This document shows positions 54,331-64,000 of a stretch of 64,000 bases of DNA, in pieces. Under the pieces are notes generated by a model. The model saw only the letters and a program-made list of their open reading frames with translations. It had not been told where the DNA came from and did no database searches. The stretch comes from Methylocystis sp. ATCC 49242 (lineage in GTDB: Bacteria > Pseudomonadota > Alphaproteobacteria > Rhizobiales > Beijerinckiaceae). Numbering within the stretch: position 1 is the stretch's first letter; each line of letters opens with the position of its first letter. The position numbers and the translations under genes are program-made. The stretch covers positions 780,736 through 844,735 of the forward strand of contig NZ_KE124774.1 in NCBI RefSeq assembly GCF_000188155.2. Reading direction: 5' to 3'.

Positions 54331-54407
54331 TGGTCGGGGCAGCAGGATTCGAACCTGCGACCTGAAGTACCCAAAACTTCCGCGCTACCAGGCTGCGCTA
54401 TACCCCG
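54331..54407 (-). tRNA. tRNA-Pro (anticodon TGG)
   Basis: Cloverleaf on the minus strand: acceptor CGGGGTA / TGCCCCG, D-arm GCGC...GCGC, anticodon stem GAAGT / ACTTC with loop TTTGGGT, T-arm GCAGG-TTCGAAT-CCTGC, encoded CCA. Its 5' end faces the integrase gene 36 bases away, marking the left limit of the integrated element. Confidence 0.97.
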
Positions 54408-54443
54408 ACGTTGATTTTACTCAGTTTCTTCCCACGGCTTACC

Positions 54444-55511
54444 TTACAACTCCTGCTCCTGTGAGAGCAATGTGCTGGGACTGTGTTTGTTGATCGACAC
54501 TAGGAGTGTCTCAATCGATCCGTTTGCATATCCTCCGTGCGTTGTGTCGTCCAGATGCCCGAGGACGTCTTTTCGGTCTTCGCGCGACATTCCTGACTGC
54601 CTCGTCCAAGACGCAAATGTATGACGCAGATCATGAATGCGCGCTTTTGGAACCCCTGCTCTCAGCCTCAACCTTCGCCATCCAGCGCCGATCGATTTGT
54701 ATCGATCTCCAGTCCTGTGGTTAACGAAGACATAAGGACAAGCTGTGAGTCGGGAAAGGTGTGTGAGTGTGTGTAGAGCTGTGTTTGACAGTGGGATGAT
54801 GCGACCTCTCTTGGCCTTCTCTCGCTCCCATCCAAGGGTGATAATCTTCCTGTCAAGGTCAACCTCTGACCATGGAAGGCCGAGAGCTTCCTCGTGCCTC
54901 ATCCCGGTCTCGAGGATCAGGGTGATGAATGGATGCCAGAAGCGGTCGCCCTTGGCAGCGTCGAGCAGCTTTCGGACTTCCGGCAGCTTGAGCCACCGTG
55001 GTTTCTTGACAGGCTGCGCCAGTCCTTTCTTCCGGTAGTGGTGGCAGGGGTTCTCTTTTGGGGCCCCTTCCATCTCCCGATCGATGGCGAACTCGATGAC
55101 CGAGGAGAGAGCGGTCAACTCTCTCCTGATCTGGATGTCGGTGGTTGCCTCCCGGCGCAGACGAACGAAGTCACGCACCCAATCCACGGTCAGGTCGCAG
55201 AGCGCCGGCCGGATGGGCGTCGCCTTGAGGATCTTCGTAAGCTTCAGCGCGTAGTGCCGCCGCGTGGAGGCCTTCAACCATTTGGTTGAGGCATCGAGGA
55301 ACTCGAACGACGCCTGCTCGAGCGAAACGCTCAGCCTACGGGCGCCCTGTTCCTTGAGCTCCTGCTCTTTCTGAAGGGCTACTTCAAGAGCCCTCTTCTG
55401 AGTAGCTCGGCCTCTGGGGATATTGGTTGATACTCTTTTGATCTTACCGTCGTGATTTGTGATTTCAGCATACCAGTAGGGGCTGTCTGGACGTTCGTAG
55501 AGCTTCGGCAT
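54444..55511 (-). CDS. int: Tyrosine recombinase (phage-type integrase)
   Basis: Site-specific recombinase of 355 aa (start ATG 55511; an earlier TTG/other start overlaps the upstream gene further). Arm-type N-terminal domain (PYWYAEITNHDGKIKRVSTN), SAM-like core-binding domain (about 70-170), and catalytic domain with R in ETGMRHEEALGLPWSE, H-x-x-R in IHDLRHTFASW, GH in LGHLDDTTHGGYAN and the nucleophile Y in that same segment. All catalytic residues are present, so it looks active. It stops 36 bases from tRNA-Pro and reads toward it. Confidence 0.95.
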   Translation of the reverse strand: MPKLYERPDSPYWYAEITNHDGKIKRVSTNIPRGRATQKRALEVALQKEQELKEQGARRLSVSLEQASFEFLDASTKWLKASTRRHYALKLTKILKATPIRPALCDLTVDWVRDFVRLRREATTDIQIRRELTALSSVIEFAIDREMEGAPKENPCHHYRKKGLAQPVKKPRWLKLPEVRKLLDAAKGDRFWHPFITLILETGMRHEEALGLPWSEVDLDRKIITLGWEREKAKRGRIIPLSNTALHTLTHLSRLTACPYVFVNHRTGDRYKSIGAGWRRLRLRAGVPKARIHDLRHTFASWTRQSGMSREDRKDVLGHLDDTTHGGYANGSIETLLVSINKHSPSTLLSQEQEL

Positions 55512-55693
55512 GATACCTCTGAGGTTCGATTGGCAATCCACTCATTAAGAATATGTGGATCAACCAGCCAAGTCCTGTTGAGGTTGACAGCCTCAGGCAA
55601 GAGCCCGTGCCGTGCCCAGTAATATACTACCCTCTTACTAACTCCCAGTTGGTTATATACCTTTGAGAGTCTAACTAGATTACGAACGTCCAT
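55379..55693 (-). CDS. Excisionase-like HTH protein overlapping int
   Basis: A 104-aa protein starting at the ATG at 55693. The N-terminal part fits a small HTH excisionase/AlpA-like domain: LVRLSKVYNQLGVSKRVVYYWARHGLLPEAVNL, followed by WLVDPHILNEWIANR. Such proteins control integration direction or int transcription. Its last 133 bases overlap the integrase start in another frame, which is a large overlap; the 3' part of the protein looks less conserved, so either the C-terminus is not needed or the integrase starts later. Confidence 0.65.
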   Translation of the reverse strand: MDVRNLVRLSKVYNQLGVSKRVVYYWARHGLLPEAVNLNRTWLVDPHILNEWIANRTSEVSCRSSTNVQTAPTGMLKSQITTVRSKEYQPISPEAELLRRGLLK

Positions 55694-55702
55694 GATTCTC
55701 AA

Positions 55703-55817
55703 TCTGTAGTGTTAGAGTGGAGGTGGTTTGGAACCCACCTCTCACTTAACACCTCACCTCAAGAAGTTAAACCTCCTTAAAGGTTTATTGACATTAGGAC
55801 TTTGTAATATCTAATAT
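55703..55817. promoter_or_regulatory. AT-rich control region before the excisionase-like gene
   Basis: It contains a hairpin at 55720-55741 (GAGGTGG / CCACCTC), a perfect Shine-Dalgarno-like AAGGAGGT on the minus strand at about 55771-55778 with no long frame after it, and on the plus strand TTGACA (55788-55793) 18 bases before TAATAT (55812-55817). Nothing in the plus direction encodes a recognisable protein, so the promoter call is weak. Confidence 0.35.
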
Positions 55818-56030
55818 TTAATGCTGAGCTTTCTTGAAGATCCTGATCACCTCACTAACAGTGAATGGGACGGGAACACCCTCCTGAGTTAAAGCATCAC
55901 TGGCCCGTATCAGCCGAACCAGTGATTTGTCCAAATGGACATAATCCTCTTCATCAAACCCGGAATATAGCTCGAGAGCTAGATCCTCGCTAACATCGGC
56001 AAGGATCTCAAGGATTTCACGTTTCTCCAC
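55818..56030 (-). CDS. Small phage-type protein, 70 aa
   Basis: Acidic helical protein (EKREILEILADVSEDLALELYSGFDEEDYVHLDK). The start is a GTG at 56030 with AGGAG six bases upstream. It overlaps the end of the cysteine-rich gene by 52 bases, consistent with coupled translation. No family recognised. Confidence 0.6.
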   Translation of the reverse strand: MEKREILEILADVSEDLALELYSGFDEEDYVHLDKSLVRLIRASDALTQEGVPVPFTVSEVIRIFKKAQH

Positions 56031-56725
56031 ACATAACTCCTACTCGAAAATTGCTGATCAATATTTTTCTTACGAGACCCATGAGCTGGGAACCCGATGA
56101 TAGTGCCTCCCACGCGTGGTTTCGAACACGCCTGGCAGTGAGCACAATCCGTCTTGAGGTATGTAGCTGGACATATTGCAACCCGGTTTCCACCCTGGGT
56201 TGTAAAGCGCAGCCTACCTCCGATACGATCACGATATTCGCGTAGAGTTTCATCTTTATACTTACCCTGATCTGAGGGTAACACGACTACCACAGGTAGT
56301 CCTGTCTTGTACAACTCGTCTGCCTCTTCGATGGTAGAAGCCGACAAGTTAACATGCATACCATGTTTTGAGAGTGTCCGATATAGCTCGAAGTCTCGTT
56401 TATGGGTGTAAACGATTGATTTTGTATGAGACGAAGCCTTTGCCAGAGTAATCACCTCTGCCTCATCATTTGGCAGATCACCAGCTTGTCCATAGCGCCA
56501 GAGTGTTCCTCTTGGGAGGTTCTTGATGTTCTGGATCAGAGTAGTGAACGAAACACCACTTTCTGTGGTGCTATCCCAGACCCAGGAGATAGGCCCAAGC
56601 TCTGCGTAGCACCCCTTCCCCATCAGCGGACAGTCAGTCGGACAGGTGTCTCTTGACGATGTAACGACCGGGATCGGGCCTGTCTTTGGATTACGGGAGA
56701 TGGGGGTGAAAAGATATCTCGACAT
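55979..56725 (-). CDS. Cysteine-rich phage/plasmid protein (possibly DUF7227 family)
   Basis: A 248-aa soluble protein with two cysteine clusters: RDTCPTDCPLMGKGCYAE near residue 27 (C-x3-C-x6-C) and CPATYLKTDCAHCQACS near residue 200 (C-x8-C-x2-C-x2-C), the second ending in VGGTIIGFPAHGSRKK. This layout suggests iron-sulfur or zinc binding. From memory it resembles proteins of phages and broad-host plasmids catalogued as DUF7227; function unknown. The ATG at 56725 is used; a TTG eight codons upstream lies in the conserved hairpin element. Confidence 0.65.
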   Translation of the reverse strand: MSRYLFTPISRNPKTGPIPVVTSSRDTCPTDCPLMGKGCYAELGPISWVWDSTTESGVSFTTLIQNIKNLPRGTLWRYGQAGDLPNDEAEVITLAKASSHTKSIVYTHKRDFELYRTLSKHGMHVNLSASTIEEADELYKTGLPVVVVLPSDQGKYKDETLREYRDRIGGRLRFTTQGGNRVAICPATYLKTDCAHCQACSKPRVGGTIIGFPAHGSRKKNIDQQFSSRSYVWRNVKSLRSLPMLARI

Positions 56726-56741
56726 GGATGTTGGGGTTCCT

Positions 56742-56780
56742 TTAGGCAAAGAAAAAGCCCGCCCCTTTCAGGGGCGGGCT
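56742..56780 (-). terminator. Hairpin element, copy A (conserved TTTTTCTTTGCCTAA)
   Basis: On the minus strand an 11-bp perfect stem (AGCCCGCCCCT / AGGGGCGGGCT, TTC loop) is followed by TTTTTCTTTGCCTAA, then a short spacer and the ATG at 56725 of the next gene. It has the form of an intrinsic terminator placed immediately before a start codon. Confidence 0.85.
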
Positions 56781-56812
56781 CTGTTAGAACAGATGTTATG
56801 ACGGTTTACGCT

Positions 56813-57181
56813 TTACGTATCTCGTGGATGGATAATGAACCGGCCATCGTTGAACTCAGTCTCCGGTCGCGCCCACAACCTCCCATCAACGGGAGATCGA
56901 TAAACAACGATCTTCGTCCCCTCAGATATGGGAAAGGCTGTTTGAAGCTCACCTACTCCCATCACATCGTAGGTTGAGGGTGATCTTCCCCTCACATGAG
57001 TGGCAGTCCCCTCATAAGGTTGCAGAGCCCACCCATCGTATTGGAGGAAATTGAGGAAGCCATTGATGGCTCGCTCGACATCCTCCGCTGATACATTTTC
57101 CCCAATACAGGCCCAGGCGACACGCTTGGCTCGCTTAAGCGAGGAGTCGAAGTCAGCCAAGATGATCCTCCACCCAGTCAT
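56813..57181 (-). CDS. Phage-type protein of unknown function, 122 aa
   Basis: Soluble mixed alpha/beta protein from the ATG at 57181 (MTGWRIILADFDSSLKRAKRVAW). The middle has EDVERAINGFLNFLQYDGWALQPYEG, the end a beta-strand-rich KIVVYRSPVDGRLWARPET. It overlaps the upstream 55-aa gene by 29 bases. No family recognised. Confidence 0.6.
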   Translation of the reverse strand: MTGWRIILADFDSSLKRAKRVAWACIGENVSAEDVERAINGFLNFLQYDGWALQPYEGTATHVRGRSPSTYDVMGVGELQTAFPISEGTKIVVYRSPVDGRLWARPETEFNDGRFIIHPRDT

Positions 57182-57320
57182 AGATCCGACGACAGGTTCG
57201 TGCTGTGATAGTTGAAAGACCCCACAGCAAAGCAAAACCGATGAGGGATAGGAGAGCCCAGGCCAGGATCTGGAACACCCAGTCGATGACCACCGTGAGG
57301 ATGGCGACGATCGTGATCAT
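57153..57320 (-). CDS. Small membrane protein, 55 aa
   Basis: Begins MITIVAILTVVIDWVFQILAW with a hydrophobic region through LLSLIGFALLWGL, then a basic/amphipathic tail (RTCRRIYDWVEDHLG), the layout of a single- or two-helix inner membrane protein. The ATG overlaps the stop of the preceding gene (ATGA), and GAGGAGG is placed ten bases before it inside that gene. It could be a small holin-like or membrane-active accessory; no direct evidence for that. Confidence 0.75.
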   Translation of the reverse strand: MITIVAILTVVIDWVFQILAWALLSLIGFALLWGLSTITARTCRRIYDWVEDHLG

Positions 57321-57643
57321 GCGGCGATGTCCTCCTCGACGGGACGACGGAGCTCAGAAGGAGGGACCGGTGTGTAGTAACCACCTTCGCTCTTGATAAG
57401 GGCCACATCCTCGTTGATGAACACCACGGTCCAGAGGTTGTCTTCGTCAGCCACCGTCACCTTATCCCCAACAAGGATCATTGGTTTCTCAACGTGGATG
57501 AGATTCTTCTCTTTGATGTAGATTGTATCATACTCCCTTCCTTCTACGACAACCGCGAGATTGTCATCCTCATTAGTATTGGTATCATATTTCATGACCA
57601 TACGAACAGCGACCACATCGCCCTTGCGATATTTGATTGCCAT
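57317..57643 (-). CDS. Phage-type protein of unknown function, 108 aa
   Basis: A beta-rich, probably small-barrel protein (YRKGDVVAVRMVMKYDTNT ... LVGDKVTVADEDNLWTVVFIN). It overlaps the preceding gene by one base (TAATG) and the following one by four bases, so expression is coupled. No family recognised. Confidence 0.65.
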   Translation of the reverse strand: MAIKYRKGDVVAVRMVMKYDTNTNEDDNLAVVVEGREYDTIYIKEKNLIHVEKPMILVGDKVTVADEDNLWTVVFINEDVALIKSEGGYYTPVPPSELRRPVEEDIAA

Positions 57644-58137
57644 TAGAGGTGTTCCTCTTCCAGAATGTCGTTGATGATGTCGACCGTGCTCTTCCCGCGG
57701 ATCTTGTCCTTGGTGATCACATGGGCGGCTCCACCAAAGTCGTGAGGCCGCATCTTGTCGCAGTAGAAGGCTGAAACCACCGTGATGTAGGTGAGCGTCT
57801 CGGAGCGCTTCACGATGTCCTGCAGGATCTCGAAATAAGTCTGCCCCGGGGTGGTGAGGTTGATGTCGAAGTCCTCGTCGATCTCAGTTGAGAGCAGAAG
57901 ATCCTCGACCAGCTTGTTGAGGAAGCTATCCCTATCGTTCGACGTTGCGAGAGCATCGGCCAGTTCCTCGCGAGATATATAGACAACGTCGTTGGATGCT
58001 TCCTCCGCGAAGAAGTAAGCCTTGTCTCCGTCGACCACAGATGTGAAGACCGTGTGGAGGATCAGGAACTCAAGGTCCGTCATGTCCTTGAGCGGGATGT
58101 TGGGCTGGATGATGGTGGGGAAGTAGTTGTTGGCCAT
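57643..58137 (-). CDS. Phage-type protein of unknown function, 164 aa
   Basis: Helical protein from the ATG at 58137 (MANNYFPTIIQPNIPLKDMTDLEFLILHTVF). It contains EEASNDVVYISREELADALATS and later KRSETLTYITVVSAFYCDKMRPHDFGGAAHVI. It starts 1 base after the stop of the gene upstream. No recognised domain. Confidence 0.65.
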   Translation of the reverse strand: MANNYFPTIIQPNIPLKDMTDLEFLILHTVFTSVVDGDKAYFFAEEASNDVVYISREELADALATSNDRDSFLNKLVEDLLLSTEIDEDFDINLTTPGQTYFEILQDIVKRSETLTYITVVSAFYCDKMRPHDFGGAAHVITKDKIRGKSTVDIINDILEEEHL

Positions 58138-58138
58138 G

Positions 58139-58435
58139 TTACAGCCTCTCCCCTGCGAACGTCTCGCGACCGAGAGGTGCCTCGGGTTCATCCGGCGCCG
58201 TCGCTGGTGCTGGTGCTTTGAACTGCACCTGCTCCAAGGCCAGATCCAATGCCAGCTGGAAGGCTCGATGCGTGACCGAGTTCGTGTCGCCGCGCATCAG
58301 TTCGGCGATCACGTTGGAGTGAAAACGATCTTCCAGCAGGCGGAAGTCGTGCTGCTTCGCCTCGACCTCAGTTGCGAAGAACTTGTTGACGAGGATCCGG
58401 GATTGATAGGCAAGAACCTGAGGGTAGTAGACCAT
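58139..58435 (-). CDS. Phage-type protein of unknown function, 98 aa
   Basis: Helical N-terminal part (VLAYQSRILVNKFFATEVEAKQHDFRLLEDRFHSNVIAEL) and a Pro/Ala-rich C-terminus. It begins just after the second copy of the conserved hairpin element. No recognised domain. Confidence 0.6.
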   Translation of the reverse strand: MVYYPQVLAYQSRILVNKFFATEVEAKQHDFRLLEDRFHSNVIAELMRGDTNSVTHRAFQLALDLALEQVQFKAPAPATAPDEPEAPLGRETFAGERL

Positions 58436-58453
58436 GTTGTGTTGCCCCGTTCA

Positions 58454-58501
58454 TTAGGCAAAGAAAAACCCGCACACATGCCTGAGATCATGTGTGCGGG
58501 T
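58454..58501 (-). terminator. Hairpin element, copy B (conserved TTTTTCTTTGCCTAA)
   Basis: A perfect 13-bp stem (ACCCGCACACATG / CATGTGTGCGGGT) with an 8-base loop is followed on the minus strand by the same TTTTTCTTTGCCTAA as copies A and C, then CGGGG-type ribosome-binding sequence and the ATG at 58435. Confidence 0.85.
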
Positions 58502-58533
58502 CTGGAAGCCTCCTGGGAGGGAGGATGGAGTAT

Positions 58534-58908
58534 TTACGCGGCGAGCTTCACGTAGAGCGTCTGCGTCTCTTCGTCGATGCGGGCTTCCGGATGGTAGGTG
58601 TTGACCTTCTCGGTCGTGCCTGCCGGCTTCAGGGCCGAGCTCGCATAGACGCCGACGCCGTTCGGCTGGATCTTCAGCTTCGCACGATGCTTCGCATCGG
58701 TCGGCGTCAGAGCGAACCAGCCGGCGTCTTCATCCGTGCCGACCGCGATGTCGAGACACGTATCGGCCTGCCAGCCCAGCACCTTCACGAGCTCGACCGG
58801 CATCTTCAGACGACCGGTCAGATCGTTCGGCGTCTTCACGACGGCATAACGGAGCTCGGTGACGAGAGCCGCACGACGCGGCTCGCGGGAGATCTTTTCA
58901 AACGCCAT
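58534..58908 (-). CDS. Unknown phage-type protein, 124 aa (AbrB-like pattern)
   Basis: Beta-rich protein with NDLTGRLKMPVELVKVLGWQADTCLDIAVG, a pattern reminiscent of swapped-hairpin AbrB/SpoVT DNA-binding domains, then FALTPTDAKHRAKLKIQPNG. It lies 17 bases after the rIIB-like gene and ends close to hairpin copy B, so it is likely the last gene of that transcript. The AbrB link is only suggestive. Confidence 0.55.
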   Translation of the reverse strand: MAFEKISREPRRAALVTELRYAVVKTPNDLTGRLKMPVELVKVLGWQADTCLDIAVGTDEDAGWFALTPTDAKHRAKLKIQPNGVGVYASSALKPAGTTEKVNTYHPEARIDEETQTLYVKLAA

Positions 58909-58925
58909 AGAAAGTGTTCCTCACA

Positions 58926-59735
58926 TCAGTTGTAATCGTAGTGGTCGTAGTTGTCGTCACCAAAACCGTCATCGGTGTTGTCGTCGACAGTGACTACAAT
59001 CTGATTATTTCGGATGAAATCGTCAACGTAGTTTCTATCCAAGACAGACAGTGACTCATACTCACAGACACGAATTTTTGTCTGCAAGTCCTGAGGAACT
59101 GCGACGACATCATGCGGCCAGAAGGCGACGAGGATGATCTTGTCGCTGTGGCTATTTCCATAGCTGGCGACATATTCCCACGAGCCCACATGAAGCCCGG
59201 GAGCACAATGCACATTGGGATCATCGCTGATCAGGCTTCGATCCATACGGCACACCTTGCCCGGGGTGTTGTCGAACTTGCCCTCCCACTTGTCCATGAA
59301 ATCGTGACGCACGGCCTTGAGGCCAGTCAGGCGCCCATCAGGCAGGAACCCAAGCTGGTTGTGCTCCTGGAACAGAGGGAGTCGCTCACGAGCCATGTAG
59401 GAGGGGTTGCGCTGCAGGCTCTCGAGTGCGGAGACGAGCGGGTCGATCGGCAAGCCCTCGGAGAGGAAGCCAAGGAGTTTCTCCGTCCACACGTTGTGCA
59501 GTGGGGCGCCGTTGTAGAAGACTTCACGGCCCTCACGGACCTCGATCTTGCCGGCCGTGAACATGTGGATCGCAGTCGGGATGTCGGCGAGGTCGACGAG
59601 CTCCTGCGGATCGTGGTTCCCGGTGAGGAGCTTTTCACGGATGGTCGTGAAGTTCATGTGGTCGCGGCCGACGTGGTAGGGTCGGCCGTTGACGAAGAAG
59701 ATGACGTTGTGGTCGGCGATGTTGAACGGGATCAT
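58926..59735 (-). CDS. rIIB-like phage protein
   Basis: A 269-aa protein resembling T4 rIIB-type proteins: FLSEGLPIDPLVSALESLQRNPS at about residues 90-112, FLPDGRLTGLKAVRHDFMD at about 130-148, GKFDNTPGKVCRMDRSLISDDPNVHCAPGLHVGSWEYV at about 152-189. The tail is Asp/Asn-rich. In T4, rIIA and rIIB are membrane-associated and needed for growth on hosts carrying the lambda rex exclusion system. Its start overlaps the rIIA-like stop by one base (TGATG), the same order as in T4. Confidence 0.8.
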   Translation of the reverse strand: MIPFNIADHNVIFFVNGRPYHVGRDHMNFTTIREKLLTGNHDPQELVDLADIPTAIHMFTAGKIEVREGREVFYNGAPLHNVWTEKLLGFLSEGLPIDPLVSALESLQRNPSYMARERLPLFQEHNQLGFLPDGRLTGLKAVRHDFMDKWEGKFDNTPGKVCRMDRSLISDDPNVHCAPGLHVGSWEYVASYGNSHSDKIILVAFWPHDVVAVPQDLQTKIRVCEYESLSVLDRNYVDDFIRNNQIVVTVDDNTDDGFGDDNYDHYDYN

Positions 59736-61855
59736 CAGGCAGCTTCCTTCTGGGTGTGATTAGCGAGAAGTGTGAAGTAGTGGTTGATCTCTGCAACACC
59801 CTTGGGTTTCACCTCCCAGTAGTAGGAGATGTAGGACGACAGTAGATGAAGCAGAGGATACTTGATCTCGAGGGCCATTCTCTGGTCCTTGAGGATAGTG
59901 TTGAGAGTTTTTCTCTCCGTCCTGGATTGGGAGCAGTATTGAATGTAGGCAGTATAAAGCCCGTCATCGACGAATTTGAGATTGAAGGCTTCATCAACCT
60001 GCTTGCAGAAATCAAGAAGATCCTGCGGAACAACAGTGGTGTCGAGATGAGGAAGGCACTTGCTCCACCGCTGAAGTTCGCCTTCAAGTCCCTTGCGATC
60101 CTGGAACCGGATCAGTTCCTTGTCGTCGATGAGAGGGGTGAGCTGAGCATCGATGTAATCCCCGAGAAGCACCCAGTCATCAGTCTGGGGAACTTCATCA
60201 GGCAGGAAGCACCAGATGTGTTTCTGATCGATCAGCTTTCGATCAGTCAGGAAGTTGGTGATATTCCTGACCTCATACCCACCAACAACATTCTTGAACG
60301 GAGACCTGAGAAAGAACTTCTCACGACGATGGTGGGGACGATGATGCAGCACCACGAATACACCACCCTGTGACAGGTCACACGGCAGCTTGGCATCTGC
60401 CCTACCATTCGAGTTGATGAAGTAGACAGGCTTGACGTTCGGATCACGCTTCTGTGCAGGTTTCACAACCCGCTTCGGGAGTTTGACCTCATCAATGTTC
60501 TGGCAAGGCAGATCATCGAGGCCCAGATTGAGAAGGGCTTCGTTGATCGACATGTTCTTGGGGCGAACCCACAGGAACGGAGTTTCTGGGTTGAGATGCT
60601 TCAGCTTCAGGAGCGTCAGGAGCATCAGGGACGACTTAGTGTTGTAGACGACGCTCTTGATGCGGGACATGTTACAAGCGCTGATGCTCCAGCTGGAAGC
60701 TCGGCGATCATGGACCCCATCAGCTTCGAACTTGTCGATATTGGACAGATCATCAACGACCATCACTCGGCACTCTAGAAGTCTGGTCGAGAAAGATGTG
60801 CGGAGGTTCTTACCCTTGAAGTTCAAGAGATTATTGCTGAGAAGATGACCGACTCCCTGATGGGTTTGGTAGAGACTTTCAACGATGCTGCACGCCTCGA
60901 CGTAAGTCTTGGCGCTGTCGATCTTGGATTGCAGCTTGGCTGCGTAGTCCACCTCGAATGAACGAAGGAGCTCGTTGATCTGCTTCTTCGTCGGTTCGTC
61001 GTAACCAAGTTCCTCACGCGAAGTCGTGAAGCTCAGAGATCCGATCGGTGCGTCGAAAACGATATTGGCATGGCTCCAAGGCCAGTTGCGTTGACCAATT
61101 GTCTCGAAGTTGATCGGATAGGCCACGCATCCCATGCGGACGTGAGGATATTTGAAGGGAGGGTTGTTGAAGGAAGTGTTGCTGTTATACAGCGTCCAAT
61201 TGGACCCCTTCTCGAGCTCCGATCCAGTCCACTCAATTACAGATGAGGGGGTGATGTTGGGACGAACCGGGAAGTGCCAGTAGATCTCCTTCGCCGCGTT
61301 GGTGAACTCCGCGATATCCTCCTTATCGACCGTGAAGGAGACCTCGAGTCCTGAAGGTTCATTGGTGGGGGTTGATCCGAAGTAATGACACTCAGGCATT
61401 CCCTCGGGAGAAAGAGCCATGACGTAGGTATGAACTTCACCGTTCTGGAACGACTGCACCGTGAAGGAGGCACCTCCCTGCCCTTTCGAGATCAGATAAG
61501 CAATCGGGCTCTTGCAGCCATATCCTAGACCGCCGACCTGATCGTTCGTGTGCCGCTTTCCGGAACCACCGAAGGTCGTGTAGAGTGTCATCATGGCATG
61601 GTGGCTGAGACCGGAGCCGTTGTCCCGAACCTTGAACGTCGGGTCAAACATCGTGGGGAGCTGAACGTGGAACGGCTGCGAGGGGTTCGCGTCGTAGGCG
61701 TTGGTCCCGACCTCGCGGACAGGATAGCGGATCTTATCTTTGGCGATGCCCGACATCAGGGCATAGGCCATCGTGGCGTCGAAGTTGATGCAGAACTCGG
61801 TTGTGGCGAGAGCACCGTTGGAGACGGACGTGAAGTCCTTGTGGATGATTTTCAT
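59735..61855 (-). CDS. rIIA-like protein with GHKL ATPase domain
   Basis: A 706-aa protein whose first 130 residues show the GHKL (histidine-kinase/Hsp90/MutL) ATP site: E48-x3-N52-x2-D55 in VREVGTNAYDAN, D78-N-G-S-G82, and G108-G-L-G-Y-G113. The remaining part is a long domain typical of phage rIIA-like proteins (T4 rIIA is about 725 aa). It follows hairpin copy C, with GAGGAACG before the ATG, and is coupled to the rIIB-like gene. Together with rIIB it would form the known two-protein module; role here is inference. Confidence 0.82.
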   Translation of the reverse strand: MKIIHKDFTSVSNGALATTEFCINFDATMAYALMSGIAKDKIRYPVREVGTNAYDANPSQPFHVQLPTMFDPTFKVRDNGSGLSHHAMMTLYTTFGGSGKRHTNDQVGGLGYGCKSPIAYLISKGQGGASFTVQSFQNGEVHTYVMALSPEGMPECHYFGSTPTNEPSGLEVSFTVDKEDIAEFTNAAKEIYWHFPVRPNITPSSVIEWTGSELEKGSNWTLYNSNTSFNNPPFKYPHVRMGCVAYPINFETIGQRNWPWSHANIVFDAPIGSLSFTTSREELGYDEPTKKQINELLRSFEVDYAAKLQSKIDSAKTYVEACSIVESLYQTHQGVGHLLSNNLLNFKGKNLRTSFSTRLLECRVMVVDDLSNIDKFEADGVHDRRASSWSISACNMSRIKSVVYNTKSSLMLLTLLKLKHLNPETPFLWVRPKNMSINEALLNLGLDDLPCQNIDEVKLPKRVVKPAQKRDPNVKPVYFINSNGRADAKLPCDLSQGGVFVVLHHRPHHRREKFFLRSPFKNVVGGYEVRNITNFLTDRKLIDQKHIWCFLPDEVPQTDDWVLLGDYIDAQLTPLIDDKELIRFQDRKGLEGELQRWSKCLPHLDTTVVPQDLLDFCKQVDEAFNLKFVDDGLYTAYIQYCSQSRTERKTLNTILKDQRMALEIKYPLLHLLSSYISYYWEVKPKGVAEINHYFTLLANHTQKEAA

Positions 61856-61869
61856 GTTTCGTTCCTCGA

Positions 61870-61906
61870 TTAGGCAAAGAAAAAGCCGCCCAGAGTTGGG
61901 GCGGCT
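61870..61906 (-). terminator. Hairpin element, copy C (conserved TTTTTCTTTGCCTAA)
   Basis: An 8-bp stem (AGCCGCCC / GGGCGGCT) followed on the minus strand by TTTTTCTTTGCCTAA, with the ATG of the rIIA-like gene 14 bases further on. Confidence 0.85.
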
Positions 61907-61920
61907 GTTTTCGGTAGGTA

Positions 61921-62265
61921 TCAGTGACTGGTGGTCATCACCCTTTCTCTTATCTTGTTGAATAGATCAGGATGTTCAGTTCGAATGATCGAGATGAACC
62001 TCTGATCCAGGGACTCACGATACATGCGCTTGAGGGCCGAGCGCTTTCTCTGCACGATTACTAGCCCCACCTTTTTGAGCATCAGAGCCCTGTTGGCTTT
62101 GTGGATCCAAGAGGGATCATCATCATATTGGTAGGGTTGCTCGAGCTGGAGTTTGATAGTCGCTATCTGCTCGTCGAGGATCGACTCTGCCTCATCGCAA
62201 CCCTCGAGAGTAGTAATGTCGTCGGTCGTGAAATTTTCATCGATAACTATGGGTCTGTGTTTCAC
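61921..62265 (-). CDS. Phage-type protein of unknown function, 114 aa
   Basis: Chosen start is the GTG at 62265, with AGGAGG nine bases upstream; a longer frame running to 62547 overlaps the phosphoesterase gene and is discarded. The protein is helical and charged (TLEGCDEAESILDEQIATIKLQLEQPYQYDD ... RKRSALKRMYRESLDQRFISIIRTEHPDLFNKIRERV). No family recognised. Confidence 0.6.
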   Translation of the reverse strand: MKHRPIVIDENFTTDDITTLEGCDEAESILDEQIATIKLQLEQPYQYDDDPSWIHKANRALMLKKVGLVIVQRKRSALKRMYRESLDQRFISIIRTEHPDLFNKIRERVMTTSH

Positions 62266-62278
62266 TATTTGATGCCTC

Positions 62279-62761
62279 CTATTTAAGAACCTCATGAAGA
62301 GCGAGTGGGCGATACCCAGGAACCGCGTCCACACCAACATCCCGTTTGCGAGGAGTTGCCGGAATGGTGTTGTGGGTGTGGCCGTGGAGGTGGATGTCGC
62401 CAAGGAAGTGATCCTTGGGGTGATGAGCCAGGAACAGGGACTTCCCACTGATGCCAACAGCGCAGGTTTGATAGACAGCATACCAACCCGGTGATTTTCG
62501 GGTGGCTTCATGATCGTGATTGCCGACCACAAGGATCTTCTGTCCATTGAGCTTGGAGAGAAGGGCCGTCACCTCACGCTTGTTGCGATAGAAGGCGAAG
62601 TCCCCGAGGTGGTAGACGACGCCATCGGGTGGGATGGTCTCGTTCCATTTGGTGATGAGGTAGTCGTCCATTTCGTCGACTGACGAGAACGGACGGTTGC
62701 AGTATTTGATGATGTTGGCGTGGCCGAAGTGGGTGTCCGAGGTGAAGTAGATGTGTTTCAT
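62279..62761 (-). CDS. Calcineurin-like metallophosphoesterase
   Basis: A 160-aa single-domain enzyme with all the dimetal motifs: SDTHFGH (D9, H11), HLGDFAF, VVGNHDHE, FLAHHP and LHGHTHN. It is compact, like phage and plasmid phosphoesterases in which activity ranges from nucleotide to protein phosphatase; the substrate is unknown. It lies 13 bases before the next gene and 31 bases after the winged-helix gene. Confidence 0.9.
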   Translation of the reverse strand: MKHIYFTSDTHFGHANIIKYCNRPFSSVDEMDDYLITKWNETIPPDGVVYHLGDFAFYRNKREVTALLSKLNGQKILVVGNHDHEATRKSPGWYAVYQTCAVGISGKSLFLAHHPKDHFLGDIHLHGHTHNTIPATPRKRDVGVDAVPGYRPLALHEVLK

Positions 62762-62792
62762 CGTGAGGGAAGCATCCTCGGTGCGTTGGGGT

Positions 62793-63215
62793 TCATGTTT
62801 CTTTATCCTGAGTAGAGATAAGCCTGTATGTCGTCTCAGATCGTCGGGCTCCTCCCATCTTTCCAGGAGATCGAGTAGTCTCTCTCGATATGAGACCCTG
62901 TTTGATGAGCCCCGTCATAACTGCTGAAAAAGAGTTCTCCTTTATTCCGGTTGCTTCCAATAGGTCGGTTCCAGTCATTGGATGACCTACCTGTTTAAGA
63001 ACCTCGAGGATTTCTTGCTGCTGAGGACTTATTGTTGATGACGTCCCAGGAGAATCTGGGCGTGGAGAGGAGGCTCGTGAAGAACCACTTTCAAAGGTCA
63101 ACACACCAGTTTGTGAAAGTCGTTCAAGAGTAGCGAGGGCACCCGCGGCGCTCGCCAAATCCTCAAGAGACAGCTTGTCTAAATCAACTCTGCCTCTGAA
63201 ATAACGAAGGCTCAT
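62793..63215 (-). CDS. Winged-helix DNA-binding protein
   Basis: A 140-aa protein with a short helical N-terminus, a Ser/Pro-rich linker (about 45-62) and a C-terminal winged-helix domain: QQEILEVLKQVGHPMTGTDLLEATGIKENSFSAVMTGLIKQGLISRET. It could be a regulator of the element; a MarR/ArsR-like fold is suggested only by the pattern. It overlaps the upstream gene by four bases. Confidence 0.7.
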   Translation of the reverse strand: MSLRYFRGRVDLDKLSLEDLASAAGALATLERLSQTGVLTFESGSSRASSPRPDSPGTSSTISPQQQEILEVLKQVGHPMTGTDLLEATGIKENSFSAVMTGLIKQGLISRETTRSPGKMGGARRSETTYRLISTQDKET

Positions 63216-63667
63216 CGGGCTATAATCCTGACGTCGAAGATCTGACCGTTGTCGAGGTGGATAACAGGGTTGGGGGCGTCGCCTACATCGACGAAGGTGA
63301 CCCTCTCGGTAAGACGAGTGGAGATCACTTCACAGTCGCGTTGCTCGAAGTGTTCTATGATCACGTCTTCGAGAAGATCCCGGATAGCGATGCCGATGTC
63401 GAAGGTGGTGAACTTTATGTTGAAGGTGTCGATCGCCCACCATATGCCTGCAACTCTCTCCCGATAGTCACAGACTTCGGAGCTGGTCTCCGCGAGTTGC
63501 TGAAGAGCTTCGGCGGCGTCGAAGAGCATCTTGTGCTGTAGGGTGCCCTTTTTGAAGGAGCGTGCGGCATTTGACATTTTGTTTGCGAGCCACGCTCGTG
63601 CCTCGCTGATGTCGGTGAAGTTTCGCACCGGGTGGTTGTTCCAACTGACCTTAATTGTCGCGGGCAT
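63212..63667 (-). CDS. Phage-type protein of unknown function, 151 aa
   Basis: Soluble protein, N-terminal NFTDISEARAWLANKMSNAARSFKKGTLQHKMLFDAAEAL helices, middle FDIGIAIRDLLEDVIIEHFEQRDCEVISTRL and a beta-rich end (TFVDVGDAPNPVIHLDNGQIFDVRIIAR). Overlaps the winged-helix gene by four bases. No recognised family. Confidence 0.6.
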   Translation of the reverse strand: MPATIKVSWNNHPVRNFTDISEARAWLANKMSNAARSFKKGTLQHKMLFDAAEALQQLAETSSEVCDYRERVAGIWWAIDTFNIKFTTFDIGIAIRDLLEDVIIEHFEQRDCEVISTRLTERVTFVDVGDAPNPVIHLDNGQIFDVRIIAR

Positions 63668-63688
63668 GTTCAGCTTCCTTCATATATG

Positions 63689-63716
63689 AAAAAGGCCACG
63701 TGTTGTGGGCGTGGCC
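63689..63716 (-). terminator. Hairpin terminator between two phage-type genes
   Basis: On the minus strand GGCCACG and CGTGGCC form a 7-bp stem followed by five T residues. Unlike copies A-C it is not followed by CTTTGCCTAA, and the sequence after the T run is CATATATGAAGGAAG with the next ATG at 63667. Confidence 0.7.
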
Positions 63717-63748
63717 GTGTCGTTGGGTATCGGTGGGTGTGGGCGGGA

Positions 63749-64000
63749 TCAGTCACCCCATTCGTCAGGGTCGAAGTGCTTGAGGACTTCGGGACATTCC
63801 TGTCCTGGTTCCTTTGGATAGAAGGGAACCAGTATTCCTCCTGGGTAGTCGAAGTGTGCCAGATCAACGTCGACGTTCAGGTGAAGGCAGAGCCGTTCAG
63901 CCAGTTGGTTGGCGACTGCTTCAATGATGTCCACGAAGATGTTGGCTCCGTCCATCTTGGACAGGCGAGCAGCCTCAAGCATTTCGTCGATGGTGAGTAG
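63749..64000 (-). CDS. Partial phage-type protein, at least 83 aa
   Basis: The frame is open to the right edge (LLTIDEMLEAARL at the edge) and ends at 63749. Visible part: FVDIIEAVANQLAERLCLHLNVDVDLAHFDYPGGILVPFYP, acidic C-terminus. Family unknown; the 5' part is missing from the window. Confidence 0.55.
   Translation of the reverse strand, partial: LLTIDEMLEAARLSKMDGANIFVDIIEAVANQLAERLCLHLNVDVDLAHFDYPGGILVPFYPKEPGQECPEVLKHFDPDEWGD

What the first reader, a model, noticed from the sequence alone, without database searches (positions are those of the whole stretch)
58926..61855. T4 rIIA/rIIB-like module inside an integrated element
The 706-aa protein has an intact GHKL ATP site (E48-N52-D55, D78-N-G-S-G, GGLGYG at 108-113), and the next protein matches rIIB-type signatures (FLSEGLPIDP, NPS, LKAVRHDF, FDNTPG, GLHVGS). 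They overlap by one base in the T4 order. rIIA/rIIB are known from lytic T4-like phages, where they allow growth on rex-carrying lysogens; finding them in a chromosomally integrated element next to an integrase is unexpected. They could be an exclusion or anti-exclusion module of a temperate phage, or a host-defence cargo.
Basis: partly seen in the sequence, partly recalled or inferred. Interest (0 to 1): 0.75.

Follow-up and report, generated by a model that had tools for sequence, protein, structure and literature searches.

The report
T4-type rII genes in deleted prophage
A bacterial chromosome carries the leftover ends of a virus that once lived in it, and those ends include an intact pair of genes related to the rII genes of the virus T4, which suggests that viruses able to live dormant in bacteria also carry this pair.

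Summary
The two ORFs are true homologues of T4 rIIA and rIIB (26% over 448 aa, E=6e-27; 31% over 228 aa, E=3e-32), with the main GHKL ATP-site residues kept. They lie in a 23.8-kb element bounded by a 46-bp repeat in tRNA-Pro(TGG), next to a tyrosine integrase.

The element is best read as the two ends of an ~80-kb temperate tailed phage. Thirteen of its 48 listed ORFs match the two ends of an 80-kb virus record that has terminase, portal, head and tail genes. The ~60-kb middle is absent here. At that point stands an IS4/5-type insertion sequence with 24 near-identical copies listed elsewhere in the genome and unmatched target-site flanks; it truncates a 5'-3' exonuclease gene.

The pair is no stray: five related loci repeat the order rIIA-rIIB-DUF7227-integrase, and a Methylobacterium phage-plasmid has the pair too. 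Most likely function is counter-defence against exclusion by other prophages, as published for divergent rII pairs; not tested here. "Host-defence cargo" is not supported. The genes are ordinary rII family members; the temperate setting is the mildly new part.

The parts
59735..61855 (-). rIIA homologue, 706 aa, GHKL-type ATPase N-terminal half
58926..59735 (-). rIIB homologue, 269 aa; lacks the N-terminal helix-turn-helix part of T4 RIIB
54365..54410 (.). attL copy of the 46-bp direct repeat (other copy at contig C6:858850-858895, outside the window); covers the 5' 43 bases of tRNA-Pro(TGG)
54331..54407 (-). tRNA-Pro (TGG), integration target
54444..55541 (-). tyrosine integrase (Phage_integrase, E=1.2e-20)
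55379..55702 (-). small helix-turn-helix protein, excisionase/regulator type (phrog_66 E=3.1e-6; HTH_17 E=6e-7); called AlpA-like here; partner next to the integrase in related loci
55979..56725 (-). DUF7227 protein (PF23872, E=2.3e-65), regular neighbour of this rIIA/rIIB/integrase group
58534..58908 (-). small gene between rIIB and DUF7227, also in L041 (40% identical over 127 aa)
61885..61905 (-). G+C-rich hairpin followed by a T run, directly upstream of the rIIA ribosome-binding region (terminator-like)
62279..62761 (-). metallophosphoesterase (phrog_547 E=3.3e-47)
54365..64000 (.). window part of the 23,796-bp element (contig C6:835100-858895); the IS at about C6:852516-853454, SNF2-type helicase, HNH genes, truncated exonuclease and attR lie beyond the window

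Best explanation
A temperate tailed phage of ~80 kb integrated at tRNA-Pro(TGG) of a probable type II methanotroph (inferred from two pMMO/AMO subunit A genes). An IS-associated deletion then removed about 60 kb of replication, head and tail genes, leaving a 23.8-kb remnant with both att sites, the integrase and the early region. rIIA/rIIB are normal early genes of this lineage. Likely mechanism (inferred from published work on other rII pairs): RIIA, a GHKL-type ATPase, acts with RIIB at the cell envelope to stop exclusion systems of other resident prophages from depolarising the membrane when the phage enters or is induced. Shown here: homology, conserved ATP-site residues, element ends, IS at the missing middle, conserved gene order in relatives. 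Inferred: the deletion event, expression, membrane action and the target.
For: Homology; the tree pairs the window with integrase-bearing L041 (97/94) inside an 18-row clade (96/99). Element ends: 46-bp repeat at tRNA-Pro; G+C 46-56% in 1-kb bins inside against 60-63% in the four bins outside. Deletion: 13 of 48 element ORFs match the two ends of the 79.8-kb record G455, whose ~59.7-kb middle has no counterpart and holds terminase, portal, head, tail and primase genes; the IS (DDE and IS4/5-type transposase ORFs) has 24 other copies listed at 100% over >900 bp; 7 of 8 inspected copies have matching 3-bp flanks, this one does not (TAA/TTA); the exonuclease reads ~58 aa up to the IS against 255-269 aa in three relatives (family). 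Temperate lineage: in 81 related loci (79 viral, 2 genome contigs) DUF7227 is found in 10 and an integrase like the window's in 8, all 8 among those 10; six of these integrases were tested and all six pass Pfam Phage_integrase; Methylobacterium plasmid pMaq22A_3p carries rIIA/rIIB with terminase, tape measure and holin. Function: PMC11879866 (passages), PMC9391042 (passages), PMC8594841 (passages).
Against: No expression, excision or phenotype data. RexB (PF15968) is over the cut-off in 0 of 61 genomes, own included (one match below the cut-off, E=9.3e-4, in another genome), so the published target is not evident in these hosts; that search had no positive control (0 of 14 control genomes ring). 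G455 proteins are only 27-48% identical to the element's, 35 of the 48 ORFs have no match in it, its record ends look trimmed, and four small genes are locally reordered, so it is a guide to the ancestor, not the ancestor. One of 8 inspected IS copies elsewhere also has unmatched flanks, so that sign alone is not proof. No empty site was searched for.
Confidence: 0.7

Rival explanations
1. A phage satellite or integrative island in its own right: a small element that keeps integrase, regulator, helicase and rIIA/rIIB and relies on a helper phage for particles.
For: Both att copies, an open integrase and small genes, no structural genes among the 20 proteins scanned.
Against: The gap in gene content falls at an IS with unmatched flanks that cuts an exonuclease gene; five relatives with the same end genes are 69-81-kb records and one is a phage-plasmid; L041 and L047 are fragments of 39 and 41 kb. 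The M. jeotgali contig (24.9 kb) runs on past the exonuclease into a family A DNA polymerase.
Confidence: 0.12
2. Host-defence or superinfection-exclusion cargo: the pair is expressed from the prophage and protects the lysogen.
For: The pair lies near the integrase end of the prophage, a usual place for cargo; GHKL proteins occur in defence systems (both recalled).
Against: The order rIIA-rIIB-DUF7227-HTH-SNF2 is kept where the integrase sits elsewhere or was not found (M. jeotgali, M. suomiense, pMaq22A_3p, L049, L050), so it looks like early-region phage equipment; PADLOC gives no match for either protein; published rII pairs act as counter-defence.
Confidence: 0.1
3. Neutral relic: rIIA/rIIB are intact only because the deletion is recent, and do nothing in this host. 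This does not exclude the best explanation, which is about the ancestral phage.
For: The ORFs listed in the element are open apart from the exonuclease, and the IS copy is near-identical to 24 others, as a recent event would give; no expression evidence.
Against: None decisive.
Confidence: 0.5

Closest known systems
T4 rIIA/rIIB
   Same: Homologous over the conserved parts, same order, neighbouring genes
   Different: T4 RIIB has an extra ~78-aa N-terminal part with an HTH-like match just under Pfam's cut-off; T4 genes are 11 bases apart; T4 is lytic and has no integrase (recalled)
rII pairs of T4, MM02, EdH4, SUSP1 and N4, shown to counter RexAB (PMC11879866)
   Same: Divergent members of the same two families acting as a pair (passages)
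   Different: Lytic phages of E. coli (recalled); here an integrated remnant in an alphaproteobacterium with no RexB over the cut-off
Bradyrhizobium phage BDU-MI-1 (KY940711.1)
   Same: Top-listed phage record for rIIA (34.8%); has an integrase
   Different: 121 kb, tail sheath gene; the gene after rIIA matches only the first 86 residues of rIIB
Methylobacterium aquaticum plasmid pMaq22A_3p (NZ_AP014707.1)
   Same: rIIA-rIIB-DUF7227-HTH-SNF2 order, with terminase, tape measure, holin and DNA polymerase
   Different: 85.7-kb circular plasmid, no match to the window's integrase; rIIB 574 aa

Membership tests
T4-type RIIA | Significant homology to T4 RIIA in the N-terminal ~420 residues | tested here: met
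   26% over 448 aa, E=6e-27; phrog_612 E=6.3e-88
T4-type RIIA | GHKL ATP-site motifs | tested here: met
   E48, N52, D78, G108, G111, G113 invariant and G80, G82 at least 90% in 37 sequences; Pfam HATPase_c itself below cut-off (14.5 bits), as for T4 RIIA
T4-type RIIA | Groups with RIIA and not with Hsp90 | tested here: met
   HtpG rows parted by a 100/100 branch; Pfam HSP90 not found in the window protein but in 8 of 8 other profile hits examined
T4-type RIIA | Does not group with MutL | not tested
   No MutL sequence was compared
T4-type RIIB | Homology over the ~225-residue conserved part | tested here: met
   31% over 228 aa, E=3e-32; hhalign E=4.6e-55
T4-type RIIB | N-terminal HTH-like part as in T4 RIIB (not required by the PHROGs RIIB families) | tested here: not met
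   T4 residues 1-78 have no counterpart
rII counter-exclusion module | Pair needed for growth on exclusion-bearing lysogens | not testable with these tools
   Only inferred from PMC11879866 and PMC9391042 (passages)
Integrated prophage | att repeats, integrase, phage genes | tested here: met
Complete temperate phage | Terminase, portal, capsid, tail genes | tested here: not met
   None among the 20 of 48 element proteins scanned with both libraries; the other ORFs are small and were not scanned, except the two transposase ORFs; present in G455
Phage satellite | Same-size relatives without phage structural genes | tested here: inconclusive
   No such relative recognised; sampling incomplete and loci cut at 10 kb flanks

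The most novel reading that the evidence does not exclude
rIIA/rIIB are standard early genes in several separate temperate phage and phage-plasmid lineages of Alphaproteobacteria, tied to DUF7227 and the integrase, so the rII system serves prophage-prophage competition against exclusion systems other than Rex, and DUF7227 may be a third partner.
Probability: 0.3. Interest if true: 0.6.

Novelty: new member of a known kind. Interest (0 to 1): 0.4.

Why it matters
rII is a classic gene pair known best from lytic phages, with an unclear mechanism. Finding it as regular equipment of temperate phages and phage-plasmids in Alphaproteobacteria offers natural systems in which its role in competition between prophages can be tested, and points to exclusion systems other than lambda Rex as targets. 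The remnant itself is ordinary.

Tried and rejected
Tried without result: the single-protein scans of genome contigs and viral contigs found no relatives; the alignment-based scans did. Solved structures: no sequence relative of either protein better than E=0.17. The profile search of 385 genomes of the class gave 30 with hits, own included; the other 29 are weak (at most 42 bits), 8 of 8 examined are Hsp90, the remaining 21 were not examined; none of the 29 was counted as rIIA. With the single protein, 2 of 101 relatives matched including own and 4 of 397 genomes of the order including own, one of them weak (E=6.6e-4, not examined). RexB: none over the cut-off. Literature: seven searches. Lists were capped: 23 of 24, 6 of 6, 1 of 1, 20 of 41, 10 of 17, 6 of 7 and 1 of 1 papers shown; the ten shown were about Fc receptors, so that search told nothing. 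No listed title or abstract start describes rII in an integrated phage; only passages of seven papers were seen, no paper whole. Rejected: satellite, defence cargo, Hsp90-type protein (see rivals and membership rows).

Full report
What is there. The two ORFs are at the stated coordinates and share one base. PHROGs names the first RIIA (E=6.3e-88) and the second RIIB (E=1.1e-48). Directly against T4 the first gives 26% over 448 aa (E=6e-27), the second 31% over 228 aa (E=3e-32), and a 35-row RIIB alignment matches T4 RIIB with hhalign E=4.6e-55. In 37 aligned rIIA proteins the ATP-site residues E48, N52, D78, G108, G111 and G113 never vary. A 100/100 branch parts three HtpG (Hsp90) rows from all 44 rIIA rows (first 420 residues used). 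Pfam's HATPase_c model alone is below its cut-off, as for T4 RIIA. T4 RIIB has an N-terminal HTH-like part that this protein lacks, and T4's genes are 11 bases apart rather than overlapping.

The element. A 46-bp repeat (96% identical) lies at contig C6:835100-835145 and 858850-858895. The left copy covers the 5' half of tRNA-Pro(TGG). The integrase ends 36 bases from that tRNA. The other two proline tRNAs found by similarity read GGG and CGG, so this may be the only TGG tRNA, and its upstream side is now the element; the whole genome was not scanned for tRNAs. The element is 23,796 bp. I listed 48 ORFs on the minus strand (my own choice from the six-frame list; two are transposase ORFs). Family searches of 20 of these proteins found integrase, DUF7227, the rII pair, phosphoesterase, helicase and HNH proteins, several unknowns and no structural protein. 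The host has two pMMO/AMO subunit A genes, hence probably a type II methanotroph (inference).

Where the rest went. The record G455 (IMG/VR 2937884906_000001, 79,841 bp; the identifier looks like an isolate genome's, inference) has matches to 13 of the 48 ORFs: g856504, the SNF2-type helicase, g853862 and the exonuclease within its first 6.1 kb; four small genes, rIIA, rIIB, DUF7227, the AlpA-like ORF and the integrase in its last 14.1 kb. The four small genes are locally reordered, 35 ORFs have no match, and one further weak opposite-strand match (E=0.007) was disregarded. The ~59.7 kb between has no other counterpart in the element and contains terminase, portal, major head protein, tail protein and primase. 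At the matching place the element has an IS, about C6:852516-853454, with 24 other copies listed at 100% over more than 900 bp (40 of 107 candidates scored, so a lower bound). Read by eye, 7 of 8 inspected other copies have equal 3-bp flanks; one does not, and neither does this one (TAA and TTA), as expected when a deletion or recombination has joined two different flanks. The exonuclease reads ~58 residues up to the IS; three relatives have 255, 268 and 269 residues from the same point. The family label rests on G455's and M. jeotgali's homologues (phrog_107, 5_3_exonuc_N).

Relatives. The alignment-based scan of viral contigs gave 79 loci and that of genome contigs two, Methylobacterium jeotgali and Methylorubrum suomiense. 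Of these 81 loci, 81 have an rIIA match by selection, 72 an rIIB match (some over its first ~86 residues only), 10 DUF7227 and 8 an integrase like the window's; all 8 are among the 10. Loci are limited to 10 kb on each side and many are short, so absences are weak, and other integrase types would be missed. Six integrases (L041, L047, L049, L050, L054, M. jeotgali) plus those of BDU-MI-1 and Ruegeria phage RpAliso pass Pfam's Phage_integrase cut-off; those of L052 and L053 were not tested there. The order rIIA-rIIB-DUF7227-(AlpA)-integrase is seen in L041, L047, L052, L053 and L054 (the AlpA-like match is missing in L052); in M. jeotgali, L049 and L050 the integrase precedes rIIA. The M. aquaticum plasmid pMaq22A_3p has rIIA, rIIB, DUF7227, HTH and SNF2 helicase in the same order and phage structural genes, without a match to the window's integrase. 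In the tree the window pairs with L041 (97/94) inside an 18-row clade (96/99) that also holds L047, the Methylobacterium rows and the BDU-MI-1 group; L052-L054 and the Sinorhizobium/Shinella/Variovorax plasmid rows lie elsewhere. So rII genes probably entered temperate or plasmid elements in more than one branch; the tree has long branches (T4 1.92, L114 2.19) and rows of odd composition.

Rarity. rIIA matches were found in 2 of 101 relatives and 4 of 397 genomes of the order, own genome included in each and overlaps between the samples not removed. In 385 genomes of the class 30 match, but the other 29 are weak and 8 of 8 examined are Hsp90.

How it likely works. CRISPRi-ART knock-down showed that divergent rII pairs of five phages, under 40% identical, protect against lambda RexAB and are dispensable without it (PMC11879866, passages). 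T4 clones that lost rII fail on lambda lysogens (PMC9391042, passages), and N4-like phages carry a homologous locus (PMC8594841, passages). A temperate phage entering a population full of other prophages would gain from the same protection. I therefore rate counter-exclusion as the most likely function of the pair in the intact ancestor; in this remnant it may be inert. RexB itself was over the cut-off in 0 of 61 genomes (no positive control), so another target is likely.

Known or new. The proteins are members of known families. rII is not confined to T4-like phages: 2,699 phage records match. What I did not find described in the searches is the link of rIIA/rIIB with DUF7227 and an integrase in temperate phages. 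The library lacks most subscription papers, and I saw listings and passages only.

Noticed in passing
window 61885-61905, and upstream of 58435 and 56725 (- strand): Three genes (rIIA, a small gene, DUF7227) each start directly after a G+C-rich hairpin with a T run followed by the same CTTTGCCTAA box, leaving little room for a usual promoter; L047 rIIA and L052/L053 DUF7227 have similar hairpins. Suggests read-through or antitermination control.
   Followed up: partly
L024 (7 sites), L035 (4), L049 (3), L050 (2), L028 (1): Palindrome GGTACGNNNCGTACC recurs, with a copy 38-39 bases before rIIA in the first four loci; none in 20 simple shuffles; absent from the window's element. Operator-like.
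   Followed up: partly
window 54331-54444: The element took over the 5' half of tRNA-Pro(TGG); the tRNA now lies just downstream of the integrase and its native upstream DNA is at attR. How the tRNA is transcribed is unclear.
   Followed up: partly
L002 6358-6819; L038, L039, L040, L042, L043, L044, L046, L051: In the BDU-MI-1 group the gene after rIIA is only about 154-162 aa and matches the first ~86 residues of rIIB: a shortened or split rIIB.
   Followed up: no
L111 7916-8658: 59% identity to window rIIA in the best segment of residues 1-245, but only an 88-aa open frame around the best match: a broken or interrupted rIIA in the closest relative by identity.
   Followed up: no
L026 (Variovorax sp. 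SRS16 plasmid 2, 801 kb): rIIA/rIIB-like pair in the same stretch as LigD, ExbD/TolQ-like genes and a DNA polymerase on a very large plasmid.
   Followed up: no
L181 1469-5118 (Ruegeria phage RpAliso): Tyrosine integrase gene about 0.8 kb from rIIA on the opposite strand in a 149-kb phage.
   Followed up: no
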